Of a stretch of DNA of 64,000 bases, positions 29,059 to 37,430 are shown piece after piece. Source of the DNA: Candidatus Pelagibacterales bacterium (GTDB taxonomy: Bacteria; Pseudomonadota; Alphaproteobacteria; Pelagibacterales; AG-422-B15); assembly GCA_028412835.1 (NCBI GenBank), contig JAONQW010000002.1, positions 1 through 64,000 on the forward strand. Reading direction: 5' to 3'. Both the position numbers and the translations under genes were made by a program. The notes below the pieces were generated by a model. That model saw only the letters and a list, made by a program, of their open reading frames with translations. It searched no databases and was not told the DNA's origin. Every line of letters starts with the position of its first letter. Within the stretch, counting starts at the first letter, position 1.

Positions 29059-29889
29059 TTAATTTATTTGTGAGAAAATATTCATTGTAAAAACAGCAAG
29101 TGATAGTAGTGAAAGAGATATCAAAATTGTTAAACCAACAGAAAAATTATCAATATTATATTTATTATACTGCCCTTCAAAAAACATTTTATCTTGATTG
29201 CGTCGTTCTTTGCCAAATATAAATAAAGTTATAATGACTAAGATAATTAATAGTGGGTAAATAAGTCCACTAGCTATTACTTCTGACATCAATATGTAAT
29301 CATATAATCCATGGATTATAACTGGAGCAAAAAGAGATAAAAAAAGGTTTATATTTTTATTTTTAATTATAAAAATAGCCTTAATCAAAAAATAACCCAT
29401 TATAGCACCACACATTGCATGCAATGGTACAGCGGTAAATGCTCTTAACCAAGCTACTGAAGAAGCTAATTCAACACTATCTTGTAAAGATCCAGTAACG
29501 TATTCAAAATTTTCAAATGCTGCAAAACCTAGAGATGCAGCTACACCATAAACTAAAGCGTCCATTGGTTCATTTAATTCATTTAATTTTGCACAGTAAT
29601 AAATTATTACTAGCCATTTAAATATTTCTTCTAATAAAGCTGCTCTAATAAAAGCAAAGTAGAAATGACCAGGCTCAGTGAACAAATTAAGATTTTCTGC
29701 AAATCCTTCTATTAGAGGTATGATCATTAATATTGGAAATATAGTAGCAACTCCTAGTGCAAATGTTATGAAGACAATTCTAGGAGGTTCGGGAAAACGG
29801 TCTTTTTTGTAGACATAAAATAGTATAATTAGAACAGGAATTAGTGAAGCAATAGAAAAGTAAATTATTACATTTTCTGAGCCAAACAT
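29059..29889 (-). CDS. PrsW-family intramembrane metalloprotease
   Basis: This 276-residue membrane protein has about eight helices. The family motifs are the EExxK-type LLEEIFKW (about residue 90-97), FAAFENFEY after helix 4, and the helix histidines HAMCGAIMGYF and HGLYDYIL. These match PrsW (PF13367), a relative of CAAX proteases that cuts membrane anchors, as with an anti-sigma factor in Bacillus. Its target here is unknown. It is 3 bases downstream of the ion-channel gene on the same strand, so the two are probably one transcript. Confidence 0.88.
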   Translation of the reverse strand: MFGSENVIIYFSIASLIPVLIILFYVYKKDRFPEPPRIVFITFALGVATIFPILMIIPLIEGFAENLNLFTEPGHFYFAFIRAALLEEIFKWLVIIYYCAKLNELNEPMDALVYGVAASLGFAAFENFEYVTGSLQDSVELASSVAWLRAFTAVPLHAMCGAIMGYFLIKAIFIIKNKNINLFLSLFAPVIIHGLYDYILMSEVIASGLIYPLLIILVIITLFIFGKERRNQDKMFFEGQYNKYNIDNFSVGLTILISLSLLSLAVFTMNIFSQIN

Positions 29890-29892
29890 AAA

Positions 29893-31458
29893 TTAATCAA
29901 GCCCTTGAATATTTCTGAGGAAAACAGATGTATTGATATTATCTGAAATCAATAATAAAGAAATTACAAATACCAAGACCATAAAAATAATTGGGCCCAA
30001 GTATCTTGCTTTAATATCTATTGGAGATGCTAAATTACCACTAGCTTGATAGATATTGTGAGCATATATAGCTATCAAAGATGGAACTGCAGCAAATAAA
30101 TAAGCAAGTAAAATAAAGTAATCCATTAATGTTGCATAATCCAGCTTTGGCAAATCTTTGTCATATGTGTAGTTGTAAGCAATAAGAGATAAAAGACATA
30201 CAATTGTAACAGTTAATCTTGCTTGCAGTTCATTAGGAGAAATCCATAAAGATGACCAGGCAATAATTAAGATGATCATTATAGGTACGATTATTTTGTA
30301 TATATAATAAAAATTATTTCTCTCAACACGTAACTGCAAAATATACTTAGCCCTACTATCACTCCAATAATCATCATAGAAATGTGTTGGTACAACCTCT
30401 TTTGAAACCATATCCCAATCTGGAACCTTTGAAATAGCACTAAAATCACTAGCTACAAACATTGAAAACAAACTTTGATCATCTATCGTAACTTCGTCTC
30501 TAGTATTAGCTAATTCTAATGTAAGAATTTGGGAGTCAAATGGGAAAGCGGTAAAATCAAACTTAGAGTATAAAAGCGAAGTCCCAATCCATTGATATGT
30601 AATATAAAAATTTGACTCTTCGTTTTCAGTAGGTGGATAGTATTCAAAGAGATAGATATCTGAAGACTCATCAGAAGATTCACTTAATATATTGGTAAAG
30701 TTTAAGCTAGGATTCCATAGCTGCAGATCACTAAATTTATCTGTTGATATTTCACAGTAATTAATTTCGTATAAATCTTCTTTTAGAATTAAATCTTTCA
30801 TTAATTTTTCTGCAATAAGTGCTAATTCAGGACTTTGCCAGTAATAAGAAAATAAATAATTCATTTCAAAATGACCACGCTTTGAGTCAATATTTTTAAA
30901 ATTGTTTATGACTATTTCTGGAGTAACAAAATTATCAGTAGTATATAATGGCTTAATCAATACCTCATCTATTTTAGAATTTAAAAAAGTTATATATTTA
31001 ACCTTGATATTAAGGTCCTCGCTTATTTGATCGTCACTATCAATATCTAAATCAGGATTAATGATCTTTTTAATCTCAGCATCATTCAAATTATTAATAG
31101 CAATATCATTTAATGCTATAACTTTATCTTTATGATTAAATATACTGTAAGCATCAAATATATTGCCATCATCACTTTTATATTTAGTTGTAAATATATT
31201 TAAATAGCCATTATCATCTCTAGTAAAAATCCATTCGTCAGTATCAATATCTTTTATTTGCTCAAAAATAATTCCTGACTCTACACCCCAGTAATAAGTC
31301 ATTGGTTTTTGATCAAGCCGTTGCCCAACTTGAGAATTTTTTATTTCTTCAATAAGTAAATTACAGTAAGTATTATTTTCAGCTATTGCATTATTTAAAT
31401 TAACAAAGCTAAAAAAAAAGCTAAAAGAAAATATTATTTTCAGTATATTTAATTTCAT
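29893..31458 (-). CDS. Pentameric ligand-gated ion channel homologue with an extra N-terminal domain
   Basis: This 521-residue protein belongs to the Cys-loop-like receptor superfamily (as GLIC and ELIC). After a signal peptide (to about residue 26) there is an extra domain of about 190 residues, then the beta-sandwich ligand-binding domain with the conserved FDFTAFPFDSQILTL (the prokaryotic form of the Cys-loop/WxPD region). Four helices follow: M1 starting at RNNFYYIYKIIVPIM, the pore-lining M2 after NELQARLTVTIVCLLSL, M3 in TLMDYFILLAYLFAAVPS, and M4 near the C-terminus. The channel should open on binding a small molecule or proton; ligand unknown. The longer N-terminus resembles the multi-domain type known from some bacteria. 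A PrsW-like gene follows. Confidence 0.87.
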   Translation of the reverse strand: MKLNILKIIFSFSFFFSFVNLNNAIAENNTYCNLLIEEIKNSQVGQRLDQKPMTYYWGVESGIIFEQIKDIDTDEWIFTRDDNGYLNIFTTKYKSDDGNIFDAYSIFNHKDKVIALNDIAINNLNDAEIKKIINPDLDIDSDDQISEDLNIKVKYITFLNSKIDEVLIKPLYTTDNFVTPEIVINNFKNIDSKRGHFEMNYLFSYYWQSPELALIAEKLMKDLILKEDLYEINYCEISTDKFSDLQLWNPSLNFTNILSESSDESSDIYLFEYYPPTENEESNFYITYQWIGTSLLYSKFDFTAFPFDSQILTLELANTRDEVTIDDQSLFSMFVASDFSAISKVPDWDMVSKEVVPTHFYDDYWSDSRAKYILQLRVERNNFYYIYKIIVPIMIILIIAWSSLWISPNELQARLTVTIVCLLSLIAYNYTYDKDLPKLDYATLMDYFILLAYLFAAVPSLIAIYAHNIYQASGNLASPIDIKARYLGPIIFMVLVFVISLLLISDNINTSVFLRNIQGLD

Positions 31459-31709: not shown

Positions 31710-32159
31710 ATGTGGGACAAATATAGAAAAGAAAGCAAGCAAACTATATGCATTATTGGTGTACTTATTCTTGCTGCAAAACTTGCCAAAGCCGATGGTC
31801 ATTTTAGTATCTTAGAAGAAGAAGAAATTCTAAGTATAGTTCCTCACGAACCTGAACAGGCGATCATTTTACGTAAGATTTTACATGAAGCCAGTGAAGA
31901 CGATAAGCCTTTTGAATATGATGCCGATAGAATAAAAAAATTGTTAGACGGTGATCATCCTGATTTTTTAGAGTTTATAGTTGCAGTATTATATCGCATA
32001 GCACACAGCGATCATATTTATAGTGAAGAAGAAGAGAATATGATTCTAAAGATATCACAAATATTTGATATTAAAGACCCATTAGTTGATCGTATATTGA
32101 GTTCAACAAAAAATATTTTCTCATTTAAATTTAGCTATTGGAGTAAACAAAATGCCTGA
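31710..32159 (+). CDS. TerB-like (DjlA N-terminal type) cytoplasmic protein
   Basis: This 149-residue soluble, all-helical protein matches the TerB/DjlA N-terminal fold: two repeats of a helix ending in an acidic metal-binding turn, AKLAKADGHFSILEEEEI (about residues 22-40) and YRIAHSDHIYSEEEENMI (about 94-112). In the TerB superfamily these acidic turns may bind divalent metal. TerB-like proteins are found in tellurite/stress and membrane-linked systems. It is the first gene of a four-gene run: its last 8 bases overlap the start of the next gene. No ribosome binding site stands out. The 251 bases upstream hold no gene, only AT-rich sequence. Confidence 0.8.
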   Translation: MWDKYRKESKQTICIIGVLILAAKLAKADGHFSILEEEEILSIVPHEPEQAIILRKILHEASEDDKPFEYDADRIKKLLDGDHPDFLEFIVAVLYRIAHSDHIYSEEEENMILKISQIFDIKDPLVDRILSSTKNIFSFKFSYWSKQNA

Positions 32160-34176
32160 TTTATCAAATATTCATTATAAATTTTTCCCTAAAGCTAAAA
32201 CTGCCAGCACTGGAAAAAAACTTTATTATTTTGCCTGGGCTATTGAAATTTTAGTTGCATTTGTGGCACTTTCAATTTCGGTGATAATGCTGTTAAGTGG
32301 TGGTCAGTCTGGTACACAAGTTGAAGAACTAGCTTCAAGTATTGATATAGATATGCTTTTGCTATCATTTGCCTTTGTTGTTGTTGCTGTAATGGAATTA
32401 ACTAAAATTCCTCTTGCCACTGCCTTCTATTATTCTGCCAAAATGAATTGGAGAATATTATTTTTTGTTGCTTTGCTTGTAGTAAATTTTTCAACATTTG
32501 AAACTATGATTACAGCATTTGAATTAAATTATCATAAACGTTCAGTAGCAGTAGATAGTGTTCGTAATGAGATTGACGATATAGCAGAAAAAATTGATAC
32601 GTTAAGCAAAACTAACGATGATACAGAGTTACGTGCAAAGATTAAAAAAATAGAGAACGATATAAATCAAAAAAACAGTGAATTAAACAGTCTAAGAATT
32701 GATCACAATAATGCTATTGCAGATAAAAACAAAAATGCAAAAGATGAAAAGAACAGTATTGAAGAAAGCTTAAAAGAAGAACTAGCCGCACTTGGTAGTC
32801 AAGTTGAAAGTGGAAGCTCAGTCATCGACTTAAATAAAGGTATAATCGAAGACCTAAAGGCGGATATTAAAATATTAAAAAGAGAAATTAAGCAGCTTAA
32901 GCGAGATATTGCTAATGTACCAAAAAATAATTTTCTTCAAAATTTCGATGACCAAAGAACACCTATTCAGTCAGAAATAAACAAAAGAGATACGGAAATA
33001 AACTTAAAACAAACAGAAATAACAAAGCTGACTGAAGAAAATAGACAGTCGGCAGGCACTACAGCTGAAACGAAATCAAATGAGACAAAGAATGCCAGGG
33101 AAACTGCTCAAAATAAAATAAATAATATTGATGCAAAACTGTCAGAGGAAATTAATCGATTAAATGAAAATTTTCAGATTGTTGAAAAAGAAAAAGTTGA
33201 GACAATCGAAGCTGTAAAAGCCAGTGTTAAGCCATATAAAGATGAGACAGATAAAATAGGGTTAAGTGAAAATGAAAGACGAATCGAACTTACTGAATTA
33301 CGTGAACTAAATACTGAAAAAAAAGATGAGCTAAAAACTAAAGCAAAACAAAATCAAATTTATAGATTAGCTGAAAAAATAAACGTAATTGCGAATTGGT
33401 TTTCTGGAGGTGATATAGATCCATTGCTAATAGCTAATGATAAAAAAATTGAACAATTGATATTTGAAAATAGAAATTTAAATATAGAAAATAAAAGTAT
33501 CAATAGAAAACTTAAAGCGGAAGACTCACTATTATTTAAAAAAACAGATGAGGAGATCATCGAATTAAAGGATGCGCTTGCACTAAATTCAGATTTAATT
33601 GTAGATAAAGAAAATGAAATTGCGTTATTACAGTCTGACAATAAAAGGATATTAGAAAAAAATGAATTAACTGATGGCATAATCAGTCAAGGAGAGATGG
33701 ATCGTGCTTTCTGGATTTGGTTTGGTGGCTTATCTTTTGTTATTTCAATTATTGGAACACTTGTTGCTTTTGCTGGCTTACATTTACAAGATGAAAGAAC
33801 CCATAAGATTTTAAATAAGCCATTATCATCCAGTAAAATGTTTAGACATTTTAAATTAACTCCGGTTTATATAAATAAAGCCTTTAAAGCATTAAAGGAA
33901 AGACTTTTAAGACCAGTCAAGGTTACAGTCTATGAAGAAATTGAGGTTGAAAAAATAGTTGAACGCATTGTTGAAAAACCATACGAAGTTGAAAAGATAG
34001 TTGAAAAACCAATCGAACATGTAAAAGTTGAATTCCAAAGAATAGAAATTCCTAAAGAAGTTATTAGGAAAGAAATTGTATATGTTCCATTTCCAACGAA
34101 TGATAAAGGGGTATTAGATAAAGGACCGTATAAAGTTAAGAATAATAAAAAAGAATATACTGAAGAAGAGGAGTAA
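32152..34176 (+). CDS. Large membrane protein with a long coiled coil, unknown
   Basis: This 674-residue protein is not in a family I recognise. Three hydrophobic helices lie near the N-terminus (about residues 26-49, 66-85 and 101-124). A charged Lys/Glu/Asn-rich region (about 130-515) has the heptad-like spacing of a coiled coil with repeated NDINQKNSEL-type units. A fourth helix follows (about 522-545, FWIWFGGLSFVISIIGTLVAF). The tail has alternating Val/Glu repeats (KIVERIVEKPYEVEKIVEKP). By the positive-inside rule the ends would be cytoplasmic and the coil outside, but this is inference. It overlaps the TerB-like gene by 8 bases and is 3 bases from the next gene. Confidence 0.8.
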   Translation: MPDLSNIHYKFFPKAKTASTGKKLYYFAWAIEILVAFVALSISVIMLLSGGQSGTQVEELASSIDIDMLLLSFAFVVVAVMELTKIPLATAFYYSAKMNWRILFFVALLVVNFSTFETMITAFELNYHKRSVAVDSVRNEIDDIAEKIDTLSKTNDDTELRAKIKKIENDINQKNSELNSLRIDHNNAIADKNKNAKDEKNSIEESLKEELAALGSQVESGSSVIDLNKGIIEDLKADIKILKREIKQLKRDIANVPKNNFLQNFDDQRTPIQSEINKRDTEINLKQTEITKLTEENRQSAGTTAETKSNETKNARETAQNKINNIDAKLSEEINRLNENFQIVEKEKVETIEAVKASVKPYKDETDKIGLSENERRIELTELRELNTEKKDELKTKAKQNQIYRLAEKINVIANWFSGGDIDPLLIANDKKIEQLIFENRNLNIENKSINRKLKAEDSLLFKKTDEEIIELKDALALNSDLIVDKENEIALLQSDNKRILEKNELTDGIISQGEMDRAFWIWFGGLSFVISIIGTLVAFAGLHLQDERTHKILNKPLSSSKMFRHFKLTPVYINKAFKALKERLLRPVKVTVYEEIEVEKIVERIVEKPYEVEKIVEKPIEHVKVEFQRIEIPKEVIRKEIVYVPFPTNDKGVLDKGPYKVKNNKKEYTEEEE

Positions 34177-34179
34177 TAA

Positions 34180-36660
34180 ATGCCGCGTGACCGCTCTGCC
34201 GATTCTCGCATTCATGATTATACTCCAGTAAATAAGTATATTGATGAACAAGCCCGCATTCGCCGTACCAAAAGTATTTGGGGCTATACAAGGTCTATAG
34301 CACTTTTTTTAGCAGCATTAGGGATATTTTTACTCTTATTGGCTTTAGCCTATTGGATTTTTAATAAGCCTTATCAAACAACTGACAATCAAACACAAAT
34401 TATAATAGATAATCAAGAAGAAGTCAGTGCAGAAGATGTAGAAAATTCACAAGAAGAAATTGAAGCTGCAAAAAAACAAATACAGGAAGAAAATCAGAAA
34501 ATAGAGAATGAAATAATAAGCGCTGAAAATGCAATTGATATAATAGAAGAAGAAAATAAGAATCTCAAACAAGATAGAGATATGCTTAAAGATCAATTAA
34601 ATAATTCAGAATTAACAAATAAAGAAGAACAAGAGCTTGCAGATAAAATTGTTAATCTTGATAAGGAGATTAATAAAAATGATGAAATTTTAGATGAAGA
34701 AAGAGAAAAGATAGCGGTGTTAGCGGAAGAAGATAGTAGTCAAAAATTACAAAAACAATTAGATGAAGCCATTCAGAAAAATAAAGAATTAGAAAGGCTG
34801 TACGCAGATCAAGAGAATCTTGAGCTTGAAGAAGATACACAAGAACTAATTGATGAAACAAATTCAGAATTGAAAGAGATAGAAGAATTTCAAAGCGATC
34901 TAGAAAAAGACAAAGAAACCGCAGATACAGAACGTTTACTGAAACTTGAAACTATTGATAAAAATTTAGATATTAAAAAAGAAAAAATTCAAGAAGATAT
35001 AAATCAAGTAGAAAATGATATTCAGTCTGCAGAAGATAAATTTGAGCAAGCAGATGAAGATTTATCAATTGTCCAAAAACAATTATATGATTTAGATGAA
35101 AAAATAGAACAACAGAATGAAATAGAGGAAGAAATAGAAAATCAAGAAAAATTAATCGATTTAACCGAAACTCAAAAAGAAGCTATTGAAAAAAATATCC
35201 AAGAATTGACTGATAATAAAAATAAAGTTTTTAGCGAAGATGAATTAGAAGCAAATAGAAAGATTTTAGAAGATCTCAAGAAAACGCAGAATGAAAATCA
35301 AAAAAATATCGAAACTGAGACCAGTAATATTGAGACTTTAGAAGAACAGATTCTTTCCGATACTAAGCAAATGACTCTGGAAGAAGAGAACACTGATGAA
35401 GCTGTTAAGAAAAAAGATGGCAACATCGCTAAACTAAAGCGTGAAATGGAAAAAACTATAACGGACGAAGAAAGAGCGCAGGTAGAAGAAAATATAATAG
35501 AAATGGAGCAATCATTAGGTTTATCTGAAGATCAATTAGCGGCTGAACTTGATAAAAAGGATAATCTTGAAACAGAGATTCAAGAACAAGATCAAAAAGT
35601 TAATATTCAAGAAGAATCAATTGCGCAATTACAAGAAGAAGTAATGTCTGATTCCATAAGTACAGTTGAAAAAGCCGAAATACAAAAAAAATTAACTGAA
35701 GAACAGTCTATATTAGATAACAAATTAAAAGAAAAAGCAGAAACGGTTGAAAAATTAGAACAAGCTAATAGCGAAATATCCACTATTGAAAATAGCATTT
35801 TAGATCAAAGTGAGTCTTTAATTGAACTAGAAAATGATCTGACAAAAGATACCATTACAAAAGAAGAAAAACAAAAATTTGAAAATATAGTAATTGCTGA
35901 ACAGCTAGAAAAAGAGAAGATAATATCTGAAAGTAATAAGCAAATAGAAGAACTAGACAGTAGTATAAATGCTAAGCAAAATGAAATTACACAAAAACAA
36001 CAACAGATTGAACAATTAAAAAACGAGTTAAAAGAAAACGATGATATTAAAAAAAATTACCAGCCAATTGATCAAGTTAAGATTGAAGATCAGATCAAAG
36101 GAAAGAAAAAAGAACTTGAAAATATAAATCAGGAGCTTCAGAGACAGCAGGAGAAATTTGAAAAAATTATAAAAGAAAAAGATAAACTAGTTTCAACAGA
36201 TCAATCAGAATTAGAAGAACAACTTGTATTAGTAACACAGCAAAGAGATCAAGCTCAGAAAGAATTAATTGAAATTAGAAAAGAAGCTAGAAAACTATTG
36301 AAGGAAAAAGAAGCTCAATTAGAAAATTTAAAAGATGATGCACTAGAAGAATATACGAGATTAGTACATGATTTAGAAGCTGGTATGACCAGAAAAATTA
36401 ATCCAACTATTTTTGATCAAAAAAGAAAAGATGGATTATTTATAACTACTGGTTTTGAATGGAATACAATAAAAGAAATGCTTGATGGAAAAAAACCTTC
36501 AAATAATTGGTGTTATATTGATAGAGGTACGACTGATGGAAGATATTACTTCAATAGTTCTAATACTCAATCAGGACAGTTAAAGTTAATGAATATGACA
36601 AAAAAAGAGGTCAATTTGTATGAACGTTATTGTGCCACCGTACCTCCAAGAATTAAGTAG
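34180..36660 (+). CDS. Very large single-pass coiled-coil protein with a C-terminal globular domain, unknown
   Basis: This 826-residue protein has a basic N-terminus (RRTKSIWGYTR), one membrane helix (about residues 38-60) and then about 620 residues of extremely Glu/Lys/Gln/Asn-rich sequence with heptad-like spacing, which should form a very long coiled coil. Residues about 715-826 form a different, compact region with aromatics and two cysteines (NWCYIDRGTTDGRYYF, YERYCATVPP), so a small globular domain closes the protein. The topology suggests cytoplasm-in, coil and end domain outside. I do not recognise the family; SMC-like resemblance is low complexity only (no Walker motifs). It sits third in the operon, 3 bases from the next gene. 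Confidence 0.8.
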   Translation: MPRDRSADSRIHDYTPVNKYIDEQARIRRTKSIWGYTRSIALFLAALGIFLLLLALAYWIFNKPYQTTDNQTQIIIDNQEEVSAEDVENSQEEIEAAKKQIQEENQKIENEIISAENAIDIIEEENKNLKQDRDMLKDQLNNSELTNKEEQELADKIVNLDKEINKNDEILDEEREKIAVLAEEDSSQKLQKQLDEAIQKNKELERLYADQENLELEEDTQELIDETNSELKEIEEFQSDLEKDKETADTERLLKLETIDKNLDIKKEKIQEDINQVENDIQSAEDKFEQADEDLSIVQKQLYDLDEKIEQQNEIEEEIENQEKLIDLTETQKEAIEKNIQELTDNKNKVFSEDELEANRKILEDLKKTQNENQKNIETETSNIETLEEQILSDTKQMTLEEENTDEAVKKKDGNIAKLKREMEKTITDEERAQVEENIIEMEQSLGLSEDQLAAELDKKDNLETEIQEQDQKVNIQEESIAQLQEEVMSDSISTVEKAEIQKKLTEEQSILDNKLKEKAETVEKLEQANSEISTIENSILDQSESLIELENDLTKDTITKEEKQKFENIVIAEQLEKEKIISESNKQIEELDSSINAKQNEITQKQQQIEQLKNELKENDDIKKNYQPIDQVKIEDQIKGKKKELENINQELQRQQEKFEKIIKEKDKLVSTDQSELEEQLVLVTQQRDQAQKELIEIRKEARKLLKEKEAQLENLKDDALEEYTRLVHDLEAGMTRKINPTIFDQKRKDGLFITTGFEWNTIKEMLDGKKPSNNWCYIDRGTTDGRYYFNSSNTQSGQLKLMNMTKKEVNLYERYCATVPPRIK

Positions 36661-36662
36661 AA

Positions 36663-37430
36663 ATGTATAAAACTATAAATTTTCTTATTCTTATTTATTC
36701 GATAAATATTTTAAACGTTTATGCACTAGAAGGCTCAATCATTAAAGTTACTGATGGTGATACAATACTCTTTAAAGATACTAATAATGAAGTATTTAAA
36801 GTCAGGCTCACACAAATTGATGCCCCTGAAAGTAAGCAAAAATTTGGCTTAGAATCAACAAAAAGTCTTAAAGATTTATGTCTTAATCAGGATGGTAGAT
36901 TAGAAATATCGGGTGTCGATAAATATGAACGAACCTTAGCAATAGTTTATTGCAATGATATTAATGCGAATATTTATCAATTAAAAAATGGTTTAGCTTG
37001 GGTGTATGATGCCTATGTAACCGAGTACACTTACTATAGTTACCAAAATGAGGCAAAAAAGAAGAAGACAGGTTTATGGACAGATGAGTATCCATTGGCA
37101 CCGTGGGATTTTAGAAAAAACAAAAAGAGTTATGATTACCGCATTCAAGAATTAGAAACAAAATACTCAGAATTAAAACTATCTACCACTAAACAAATAG
37201 AAATTTATAGAGAAGAAATAAATTTTCTCTCAAATAAAGTAGTTGATTTAATAAATTCATTTACTACTGAAAAATTAAATCTTAATGATGATAATGAATT
37301 TGATTGTTTCAAAAAAACTTGTACTCAAATGCTCTCTTGTGATGAGGCTTATTATAAGTTAGAGCAATGTAATATGATGGCTTTAGATCGAGATAAAGAT
37401 GGCGTTCCTTGTGAATCTATCTGCAAATAA
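36663..37430 (+). CDS. Secreted thermonuclease with Excalibur-like C-terminus
   Basis: This 255-residue protein has a signal peptide (about residues 1-20, ending VYA) and a staphylococcal-nuclease domain (about 22-135). Catalytic pattern: Asp31/Asp33 in VTDGDTILF, Arg48 and Asp53-x2-Glu56 in VRLTQIDAPE, and Arg90 in KYERTLA. A helical linker (about 155-200) leads to a Cys-rich end with the Excalibur calcium-site pattern LDRDKDGVPCESIC. It should cut DNA or RNA in the periplasm or outside, perhaps in a calcium-dependent way. As the last gene of the four-gene operon, it links the coiled-coil proteins to nucleic acid handling at the envelope. Confidence 0.9.
   Translation: MYKTINFLILIYSINILNVYALEGSIIKVTDGDTILFKDTNNEVFKVRLTQIDAPESKQKFGLESTKSLKDLCLNQDGRLEISGVDKYERTLAIVYCNDINANIYQLKNGLAWVYDAYVTEYTYYSYQNEAKKKKTGLWTDEYPLAPWDFRKNKKSYDYRIQELETKYSELKLSTTKQIEIYREEINFLSNKVVDLINSFTTEKLNLNDDNEFDCFKKTCTQMLSCDEAYYKLEQCNMMALDRDKDGVPCESICK

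What the first reader, a model, noticed from the sequence alone, without database searches (positions are those of the whole stretch)
31710..37430. A tight four-gene envelope operon: TerB-like protein, two giant membrane coiled-coil proteins and a secreted nuclease
Seen: four genes with gaps or overlaps of -8, +3 and +2 bases, so probably one transcript. They encode a TerB-like acidic helical protein, a 674-residue four-helix protein with a coil of some 385 residues, an 826-residue single-pass protein with a coil of some 620 residues and a globular end, and a thermonuclease with signal peptide and Excalibur-like tail. Inference: a membrane-spanning assembly with a cytoplasmic TerB sensor/adaptor, coiled coils outside, and a nuclease as effector. 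Possible roles are DNA uptake, defence at the envelope, nucleic acid scavenging for phosphate, or structural scaffolding. I do not recognise it as a described system.
Basis: partly seen in the sequence, partly recalled or inferred. Interest (0 to 1): 0.72.

Follow-up and report, generated by a model that had tools for sequence, protein, structure and literature searches.

The report
TerB-linked envelope module with secreted nuclease
A few per cent of the ocean's SAR11 bacteria carry a transplantable gene set for two unnamed membrane proteins and a TerB partner, usually with an exported DNA-cutting enzyme beside it; it may be an undescribed envelope guard against invading DNA, but no function has been shown.

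Summary
The four genes are real, tightly packed (gaps -8, +3, +2) and read as described. They are TerB (Pfam E=1.6e-9), B (3 TM, helical hairpin, TM, basic tail), C (1 TM, coil, small end domain) and an SNase with signal peptide and Excalibur tail. B and C match no Pfam, NCBIfam, PADLOC or PDB family.

The module is kept in relatives: C follows B in 23 of 23 SAR11 loci with both flanks, and TerB precedes B in 22. It is rare (15 of 397 SAR11-order genomes, about 1% of other Alphaproteobacteria sampled) and sits at several genomic sites, some seen empty in relatives. B and C reach Marivita, rhizobial plasmids (C there carries an added PAN/Apple domain) and the PS1 clade (B alone). An SNase lies within 1.5 kb in 8 of 13 genomes (0.06 expected); six genomes carry an extra SNase there, against 2 of 145 genomes without the module. 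Those two extra SNases end an operon holding a ZorA-like motor protein, one at the NADK-trmH spot where another genome holds TerB-B-C-SNase.

Best reading: an undescribed envelope-surveillance module with a nuclease effector, Zorya-like in logic, not in homology. Function is inferred (about 0.42).

The parts
31710..32159 (+). gene A: cytoplasmic TerB-domain protein, 149 aa, acidic, conserved DG...E motif (D29, G30, E36)
   Evidence: Pfam TerB E=1.6e-9; profile matches PDB TerB proteins 2ou3/2jxu; alignment A10
32152..34176 (+). gene B: 674 aa, TM1-3, helical hairpin (predicted periplasmic), TM4, basic tail with EKIVEKP-type repeats and conserved C-terminal EVPKEV..VYVPxPTDDxxxxKKGP motif
   Evidence: no Pfam family; conserved E-x-TKIPLA and TFET motifs; AlphaFold; positive-inside pattern
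32203..32511 (+). B: TM1-TM3 with invariant TKI(P)LA loop, the most conserved part
   Evidence: alignments A7, A11; model helices 18-49, 66-94, 98 onward
32512..33687 (+). B: long helical hairpin, predicted periplasmic (about 15 nm)
   Evidence: AlphaFold helices 157-254 and 266-367 antiparallel; length varies between homologues
33688..34173 (+). B: TM4 and cytoplasmic tail
   Evidence: hydropathy 527-545 and tail charge; invariant tail residues
34180..36660 (+). gene C: 826 aa single-pass protein, conserved cytoplasmic N-terminus, TM 39-57, long acidic coil, end domain
   Evidence: homologues 171-364 aa
36406..36657 (+). C end domain (WCY...C; C57, Y58 and C97 of the fragment invariant, likely a disulphide), beta-beta-beta-alpha-alpha
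   Evidence: alignment A8; AlphaFold mean pLDDT 89; no PDB fold match at E<=0.001; matched in rhizobial C proteins, hhalign E=1.8e-5
36663..37430 (+). gene D: exported staphylococcal-nuclease-type thermonuclease with Excalibur C-terminus; DGDT, R and DAPE motifs present
   Evidence: Pfam SNase 4.6e-22, Excalibur 8.4e-7; motif listing
29893..31458 (-). frequent neighbour: prokaryotic pentameric ligand-gated ion channel (not part of the invariant unit)
   Evidence: LGIC_1 E=7.7e-22; near the module in several loci; Fisher p=0.005 for co-occurrence
29059..29889 (-). neighbour: PrsW intramembrane protease
   Evidence: Pfam E=2.9e-33; near the module in L086, L087, L103
37445..38410 (-). neighbour: exported trypsin-like protease
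   Evidence: Pfam Trypsin_2 E=1.8e-15; homologue beside TerB in L085/L011
39439..40170 (-). neighbour family 'cl7': exported or membrane-anchored protein of unknown function, in 7 module loci

Best explanation
TerB-B-C is an accessory inner-membrane sensing module. C's small cysteine-containing end domain (with an added PAN/Apple domain in rhizobia) reads a cue in the periplasm or outer membrane. B is the transducing scaffold: four TM helices with a periplasmic helical hairpin and a conserved cytoplasmic tail. TerB docks on the cytoplasmic faces of B and C and relays the signal. In SAR11 the module is usually paired with an exported SNase as effector, which cuts nucleic acid crossing or entering the envelope. 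The most likely purpose is defence against incoming phage or plasmid DNA, comparable in logic to Zorya (membrane sensor plus nuclease) but built from unrelated sensor proteins. Shown: gene content, conservation, linkage, several insertion sites, predicted topology. Inferred: complex formation, signal direction, nuclease activity, defence role.
For: Invariant gene order: C follows B in 23/23 SAR11 loci with both flanks, TerB precedes B in 22 (TerB truly absent in L102). Rare and patchy: 15/397 genomes of the order, 3 other genomes of 385 in the class, 2 other of 347 with a broader profile. Several insertion sites; sites seen empty in relatives: MatE-SNase|soxG and NADK-trmH. SNase within 1.5 kb in 8/13 genomes, 0.06 expected; 6/8 leaving out genomes at core-SNase sites. 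A second SNase is present in 6/14 module-bearing genomes but 2/145 without it. Those two extra SNases, in G046 and G129, close an X-Y-Z-W operon whose Z matches ZorA2 (E=1.4e-9); G129 has it between NADK and trmH, where L103 holds TerB-B-C-SNase. Distant relatives lie near defence genes: CBASS cyclase and phospholipase beside the Mesorhizobium B-C pair, an McrB-like AAA protein in L043. SAR11 islands with the module also hold caspase and trypsin genes. C in rhizobia carries PAN/Apple domains.
Against: No defence assay exists and PADLOC has no B or C model. SNase is missing at L037, L038, L043 and the rhizobial loci, so it is not obligatory. SNase has a signal peptide, whereas Zorya effectors act in the cytoplasm, so the analogy is loose. 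The NADK-trmH interval is filled mostly by surface-polysaccharide genes, with only a few defence genes, so a hypervariable location does not itself mean defence. Module-linked SNases are not one clade, and at the MatE site the neighbouring SNase is the core one. The genomes are related, so the statistics overstate independence.
Confidence: 0.42

Rival explanations
1. Nucleic-acid scavenging: the module anchors or regulates an exported nuclease that breaks down dissolved DNA for phosphorus and nucleosides in nutrient-poor water.
For: SNase is exported and carries a calcium-binding Excalibur tail; SAR11 is an oligotroph; a lone B homologue precedes phoR-pst genes in PS1-clade genomes.
Against: No transporter, phosphatase or nucleosidase recurs beside TerB-B-C. 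Most SAR11 genomes already have one core SNase (137/148) without the module. It does not explain proteases, ion channels and caspases in the islands, or loci without nuclease. The pst link was seen only in the PS1 lineage.
Confidence: 0.2
2. Envelope maintenance or mechanical scaffold: B and C bridge inner membrane and outer layers and TerB reports stress; SNase is a hitch-hiking neighbour.
For: B and C exist without SNase in rhizobia and L043; TerB proteins are linked to stress responses in the literature (own knowledge); C's periplasmic length varies freely, as a spacer would.
Against: Presence in only about 4% of SAR11 genomes and several insertion sites do not fit a housekeeping scaffold. 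SNase adjacency is far above chance.
Confidence: 0.2
3. Contact-dependent competition or surface variation: the module displays or regulates variable secreted proteins and nuclease towards neighbouring cells.
For: Tandem arrays of up to 10 diverged exported ~195-aa proteins follow C in nine loci; the module lies in hypervariable regions rich in surface genes.
Against: No toxin-immunity pair or secretion apparatus was recognised; the arrays are absent from most other loci, the window included.
Confidence: 0.12
4. The clustering is a by-product of hypervariable-region storage; the four genes have no joint function.
For: The regions hold many unrelated accessory genes; SNase position and clade vary.
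Against: TerB-B-C keeps order, strand and overlap across families and sites, and B-C reaches other alphaproteobacterial orders.
Confidence: 0.06

Closest known systems
Zorya defence systems (ZorA/ZorB motor with ZorC/D or ZorE; PMC11890865)
   Same: Inner-membrane complex with periplasmic and cytoplasmic parts plus a nuclease gene in one operon; patchy distribution. A ZorA-like operon with SNase sits at a spot that carries this module in another genome.
   Different: No MotA/ExbB/TolQ or peptidoglycan-binding homologue in TerB-B-C; the helical hairpin of B is predicted periplasmic whereas the ZorA tail is cytoplasmic; nuclease is SNase with signal peptide, not HNH or Mrr.
TerB-containing tellurite/stress (Ter) systems
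   Same: A bona fide TerB domain (Pfam, PDB profile hits).
   Different: No other ter gene was identified around the loci examined; the partners are new membrane proteins.
Staphylococcal-nuclease-type exported thermonucleases, with or without Excalibur
   Same: Domain, motifs and signal peptide as in the known family; ordinary enzyme.
   Different: Linked to an envelope module; the window's copy is divergent, its nearest relative seen being a 54%-identical SNase in G026 beside the X-Y genes.
DUF4407 (3 TM - coil - TM proteins; resemblance recalled from memory)
   Same: Similar arrangement of TM helices and coil.
   Different: PF14362 was not among the listed Pfam matches of 25 B homologues at E<=0.5 (25 of 31 families shown).

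Membership tests
TerB domain family (PF05099) | profile match above curated cut-off and helical TerB fold | tested here: met
   38.5 bits against cut-off 24.4; profile matches PDB 2ou3 and 2jxu
SNase (PF00565) with Excalibur (PF05901) | both domains above cut-off; DGDT, R, DxPE motif residues | tested here: met
Zorya | ZorA MotA/ExbB/TolQ-type protein | tested here: not met
   no PADLOC ZorA hit for A-D; only the alternative operon's Z protein hits ZorA2
Zorya | ZorB peptidoglycan-binding (OmpA-like) protein | tested here: not met
   no such Pfam or PADLOC match in B, C or the C end domain
Zorya | nuclease recruited to a membrane complex on infection | not testable with these tools
   needs experiment
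Ter systems | TerB with TerC/TerD/TerE/TerY partners | tested here: not met
   no Ter protein other than TerB among the window neighbours scanned against Pfam; recurrent neighbour families listed show none recognised as Ter
DUF4407 (PF14362) | profile match | tested here: not met
   not among the listed matches of 25 B homologues at E<=0.5; the window's own B matches nothing
Known anti-phage systems (PADLOC-DB 2.0.0) | specific model match for B or C | tested here: not met
   only weak coil matches
Anti-phage defence function in general | protection against phage | not testable with these tools
   no assay possible

The most novel reading that the evidence does not exclude
An undescribed class of envelope immunity in the ocean's most abundant bacteria: a non-motor TerB-B-C sensor that stations an exported nuclease in the periplasm to destroy incoming DNA before it reaches the cytoplasm, exchangeable at the same genomic spot with a ZorA-like motor module that uses the same kind of nuclease.
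Probability: 0.25. Interest if true: 0.85.

Novelty: new variant of a known kind. Interest (0 to 1): 0.6.

Why it matters
B and C belong to none of the families searched, yet travel together over several alphaproteobacterial orders. Few recognisable defences are expected in the streamlined genomes of SAR11 (own knowledge); a compact membrane module with its own nuclease, sharing a nuclease type and an insertion spot with a ZorA-like system, would give a testable candidate for how such cells meet phage pressure. Even if the role is scavenging or envelope structure, it defines a new conserved membrane protein pair.

Tried and rejected
DUF4407 membership of B: no match listed. Similarity of B or C to SMC, Rad50, JetC, LmuB and UPF0242: coiled-coil composition only. 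Structure searches: no PDB match at E<=0.001 for the C end domain or B (coils only). Phage collection: none for B; IMG/VR: one lone B, so nothing points to a phage system. SNase tree to show a module-specific clade: rejected, labels mixed. Defence-hotspot test of the NADK-trmH interval: mostly surface-polysaccharide genes, few defence genes, so location is weak evidence. Single-sequence searches with B or C over genome and viral contigs found nothing; profiles were needed. Literature searches gave no description of the module; only open-access papers were searched. PHROGs was not searched and no cellular AlphaFold library was available.

Full report
The observation. The window is part of a 1.02 Mb, 72%-complete genome in an order whose other members are SAR11/Pelagibacteraceae single cells. 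Four genes lie at 31710-32159, 32152-34176, 34180-36660 and 36663-37430, all on the + strand, with gaps -8, +3 and +2. A is a TerB protein (38.5 bits against a cut-off of 24.4) and D is SNase plus Excalibur; B and C have no family above cut-off in Pfam or NCBIfam. Hydropathy gives B three TM helices, a long polar helical region and a fourth TM helix; charges put both ends of B inside and the helical region outside. C is single-pass with a basic cytoplasmic N-terminus.

Conservation. Searches with the whole coiled proteins are blunted by low complexity, so I built a profile of the TM1-TM3 part of B. It finds 15 of 397 genomes in the order, one of them only a frame-broken fragment, and four of 385 in the class including the window's own. 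With named organisms it gives 40 loci: SAR11 single cells, Marivita, a Rhodospirillales MAG, Rhodobiaceae MAGs and the PS1 clade. In 23 SAR11 loci with both flanks C follows B every time, and TerB precedes B in 22; in L102 TerB is absent. Outside SAR11, L043 (uncultured alphaproteobacterium AG-892-F10) and L112 (Marivita) have B and C with a convergent TerB-like gene. Two rhizobial plasmids carry B followed by a C whose end domain is the same (hhalign E=1.8e-5) with an added PAN/Apple region and no coil. B is homologous throughout (hhalign E=5e-39), with an invariant E-x-TKI loop before TM3 and a TFE motif in TM3, and a conserved tail ending VYVPxPTDDxxxxKKGP in SAR11. C's long coil is not conserved: intact homologues are 171-364 aa against 826 in the window; L107's 564-aa protein looks like a fusion.

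Structure. AlphaFold gives the C end domain with pLDDT 89 (three strands, two helices; the two invariant cysteines lie in one strand and at the end of the last helix) and no PDB fold match at E<=0.001. B is modelled at mean pLDDT 72 with two ~100-residue antiparallel helices after TM3, a hairpin of about 15 nm; its PDB hits are coil look-alikes.

The nuclease link. Most SAR11 genomes have one SNase (137 of 148 have at least one), often at a core site such as MatE-SNase-soxG or near gpm/ahcY. Of 13 module genomes with usable flanks, 8 have an SNase within 1.5 kb of TerB-B-C, with 0.06 expected; leaving out genomes whose module sits at or near a core SNase, 6 of 8. Six of 14 module genomes carry a second SNase, against 2 of 145 without the module (Fisher p=4e-6, not corrected for relatedness). 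The SNase may be upstream (L012, L033, L039, L040) or downstream (window, L034, L036, L041), and SNases linked to the module are not one clade, so the association arose more than once. It is lacking in L037, L038, L043 and the rhizobia.

An exchange. The two module-free genomes with an extra SNase, G046 and G129, carry it in another operon, X-Y-Z-W(-V)-SNase (L139, L141); Z hits the Zorya motor protein ZorA2 (E=1.4e-9) and W has one N-terminal TM. G026 (L138) has X and Y beside the closest relative found of the window's SNase (54% identity). In G129 the operon lies between NADK and trmH, where L103 (SAG-MED11) has TerB-B-C-SNase and where NADK and trmH are adjacent in several other genomes. 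One kind of effector with two unrelated membrane modules at one spot is the strongest hint that the modules do similar work.

Other neighbours. A pentameric ligand-gated ion channel lies near the module in the window, L086-L088, L090, L092, L093, L095, L096, L099, L103 and L111, and co-occurs beyond chance across genomes (5/14 against 31/383, p=0.005), but it also forms its own clusters with PrsW. In one SAR11 lineage the island runs SNase - channel - CII-like gene - trypsin - caspase - lipoprotein - TerB - B - C - array of about 195-aa exported paralogues. The Mesorhizobium pair lies beside a CBASS cyclase and phospholipase; L043 has an McrB-like AAA protein a few kb away. Against a simple defence reading, the NADK-trmH interval mostly holds polysaccharide genes, with a few restriction and protease genes.

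Mechanism. The parts fit a sensor that spans the inner membrane: C reads the periplasmic side, B transmits, TerB relays inside, and the exported SNase acts on nucleic acid in the envelope. Zorya, in which a membrane complex recruits a nuclease on infection (PMC11890865), is the nearest logic, but no Zorya component is present in TerB-B-C. Complex formation, signal direction and purpose are inference. Defence is my first choice at 0.42; scavenging and envelope maintenance follow at 0.2 each.

Verdict. A real, conserved, undescribed accessory module whose membrane components fall in no family searched; the nuclease is a frequent but optional partner; the giant coil is a local expansion; function open.

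Noticed in passing
L139:3173-8220; L141:2480-7388; L138:6291-9420: Another conserved operon X(480 aa, multi-TM)-Y(1 TM, possibly vWA-like)-Z(ZorA2-like MotA/TolQ)-W(1 TM)-small gene-SNase in SAR11 without TerB-B-C; possibly an undescribed Zorya-like system with SNase effector. L138 shows only X, Y and the SNase.
   Followed up: partly
L088, L090, L092, L093, L095-L097, L099, L110: Tandem arrays of up to 10 diverged, exported ~195-aa paralogues directly after C (in L095 and L096 also upstream of the channel), with no Pfam match.
   Followed up: partly
L035:3473-6215 (-): Trypsin-like and caspase-like protease genes side by side next to a ligand-gated ion channel and SNase, conserved in several SAR11 islands.
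   Followed up: partly
L129, L130, L131; window 29059-31458: Prokaryotic pentameric ligand-gated ion channels recur next to PrsW proteases (and a CII-like gene) in SAR11; 36 of 397 genomes have such a channel.
   Followed up: partly
L117, L116, L118, L119; L044:971-9361: In PS1-clade genomes a lone B homologue lies upstream of, and on the strand of, a PAS histidine kinase (PhoR-like) and pst-type phosphate genes.
   Followed up: no
L107:11770-13464: C gene fused in frame to what looks like a glycosyltransferase end, a likely recombination junction.
   Followed up: no
L092:9542-10000; L093:9542-10000: A 152-aa extra copy of the B N-terminal membrane part lies between TerB and the full B.
   Followed up: no
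L125:9848-11377 (IMG/VR contig of 191 kb): A lone B homologue on a large contig classed as viral.
   Followed up: no
L132:7920-9646: The Mesorhizobium plasmid B gene appears split into two overlapping frames, next to an apparent CBASS locus.
   Followed up: no
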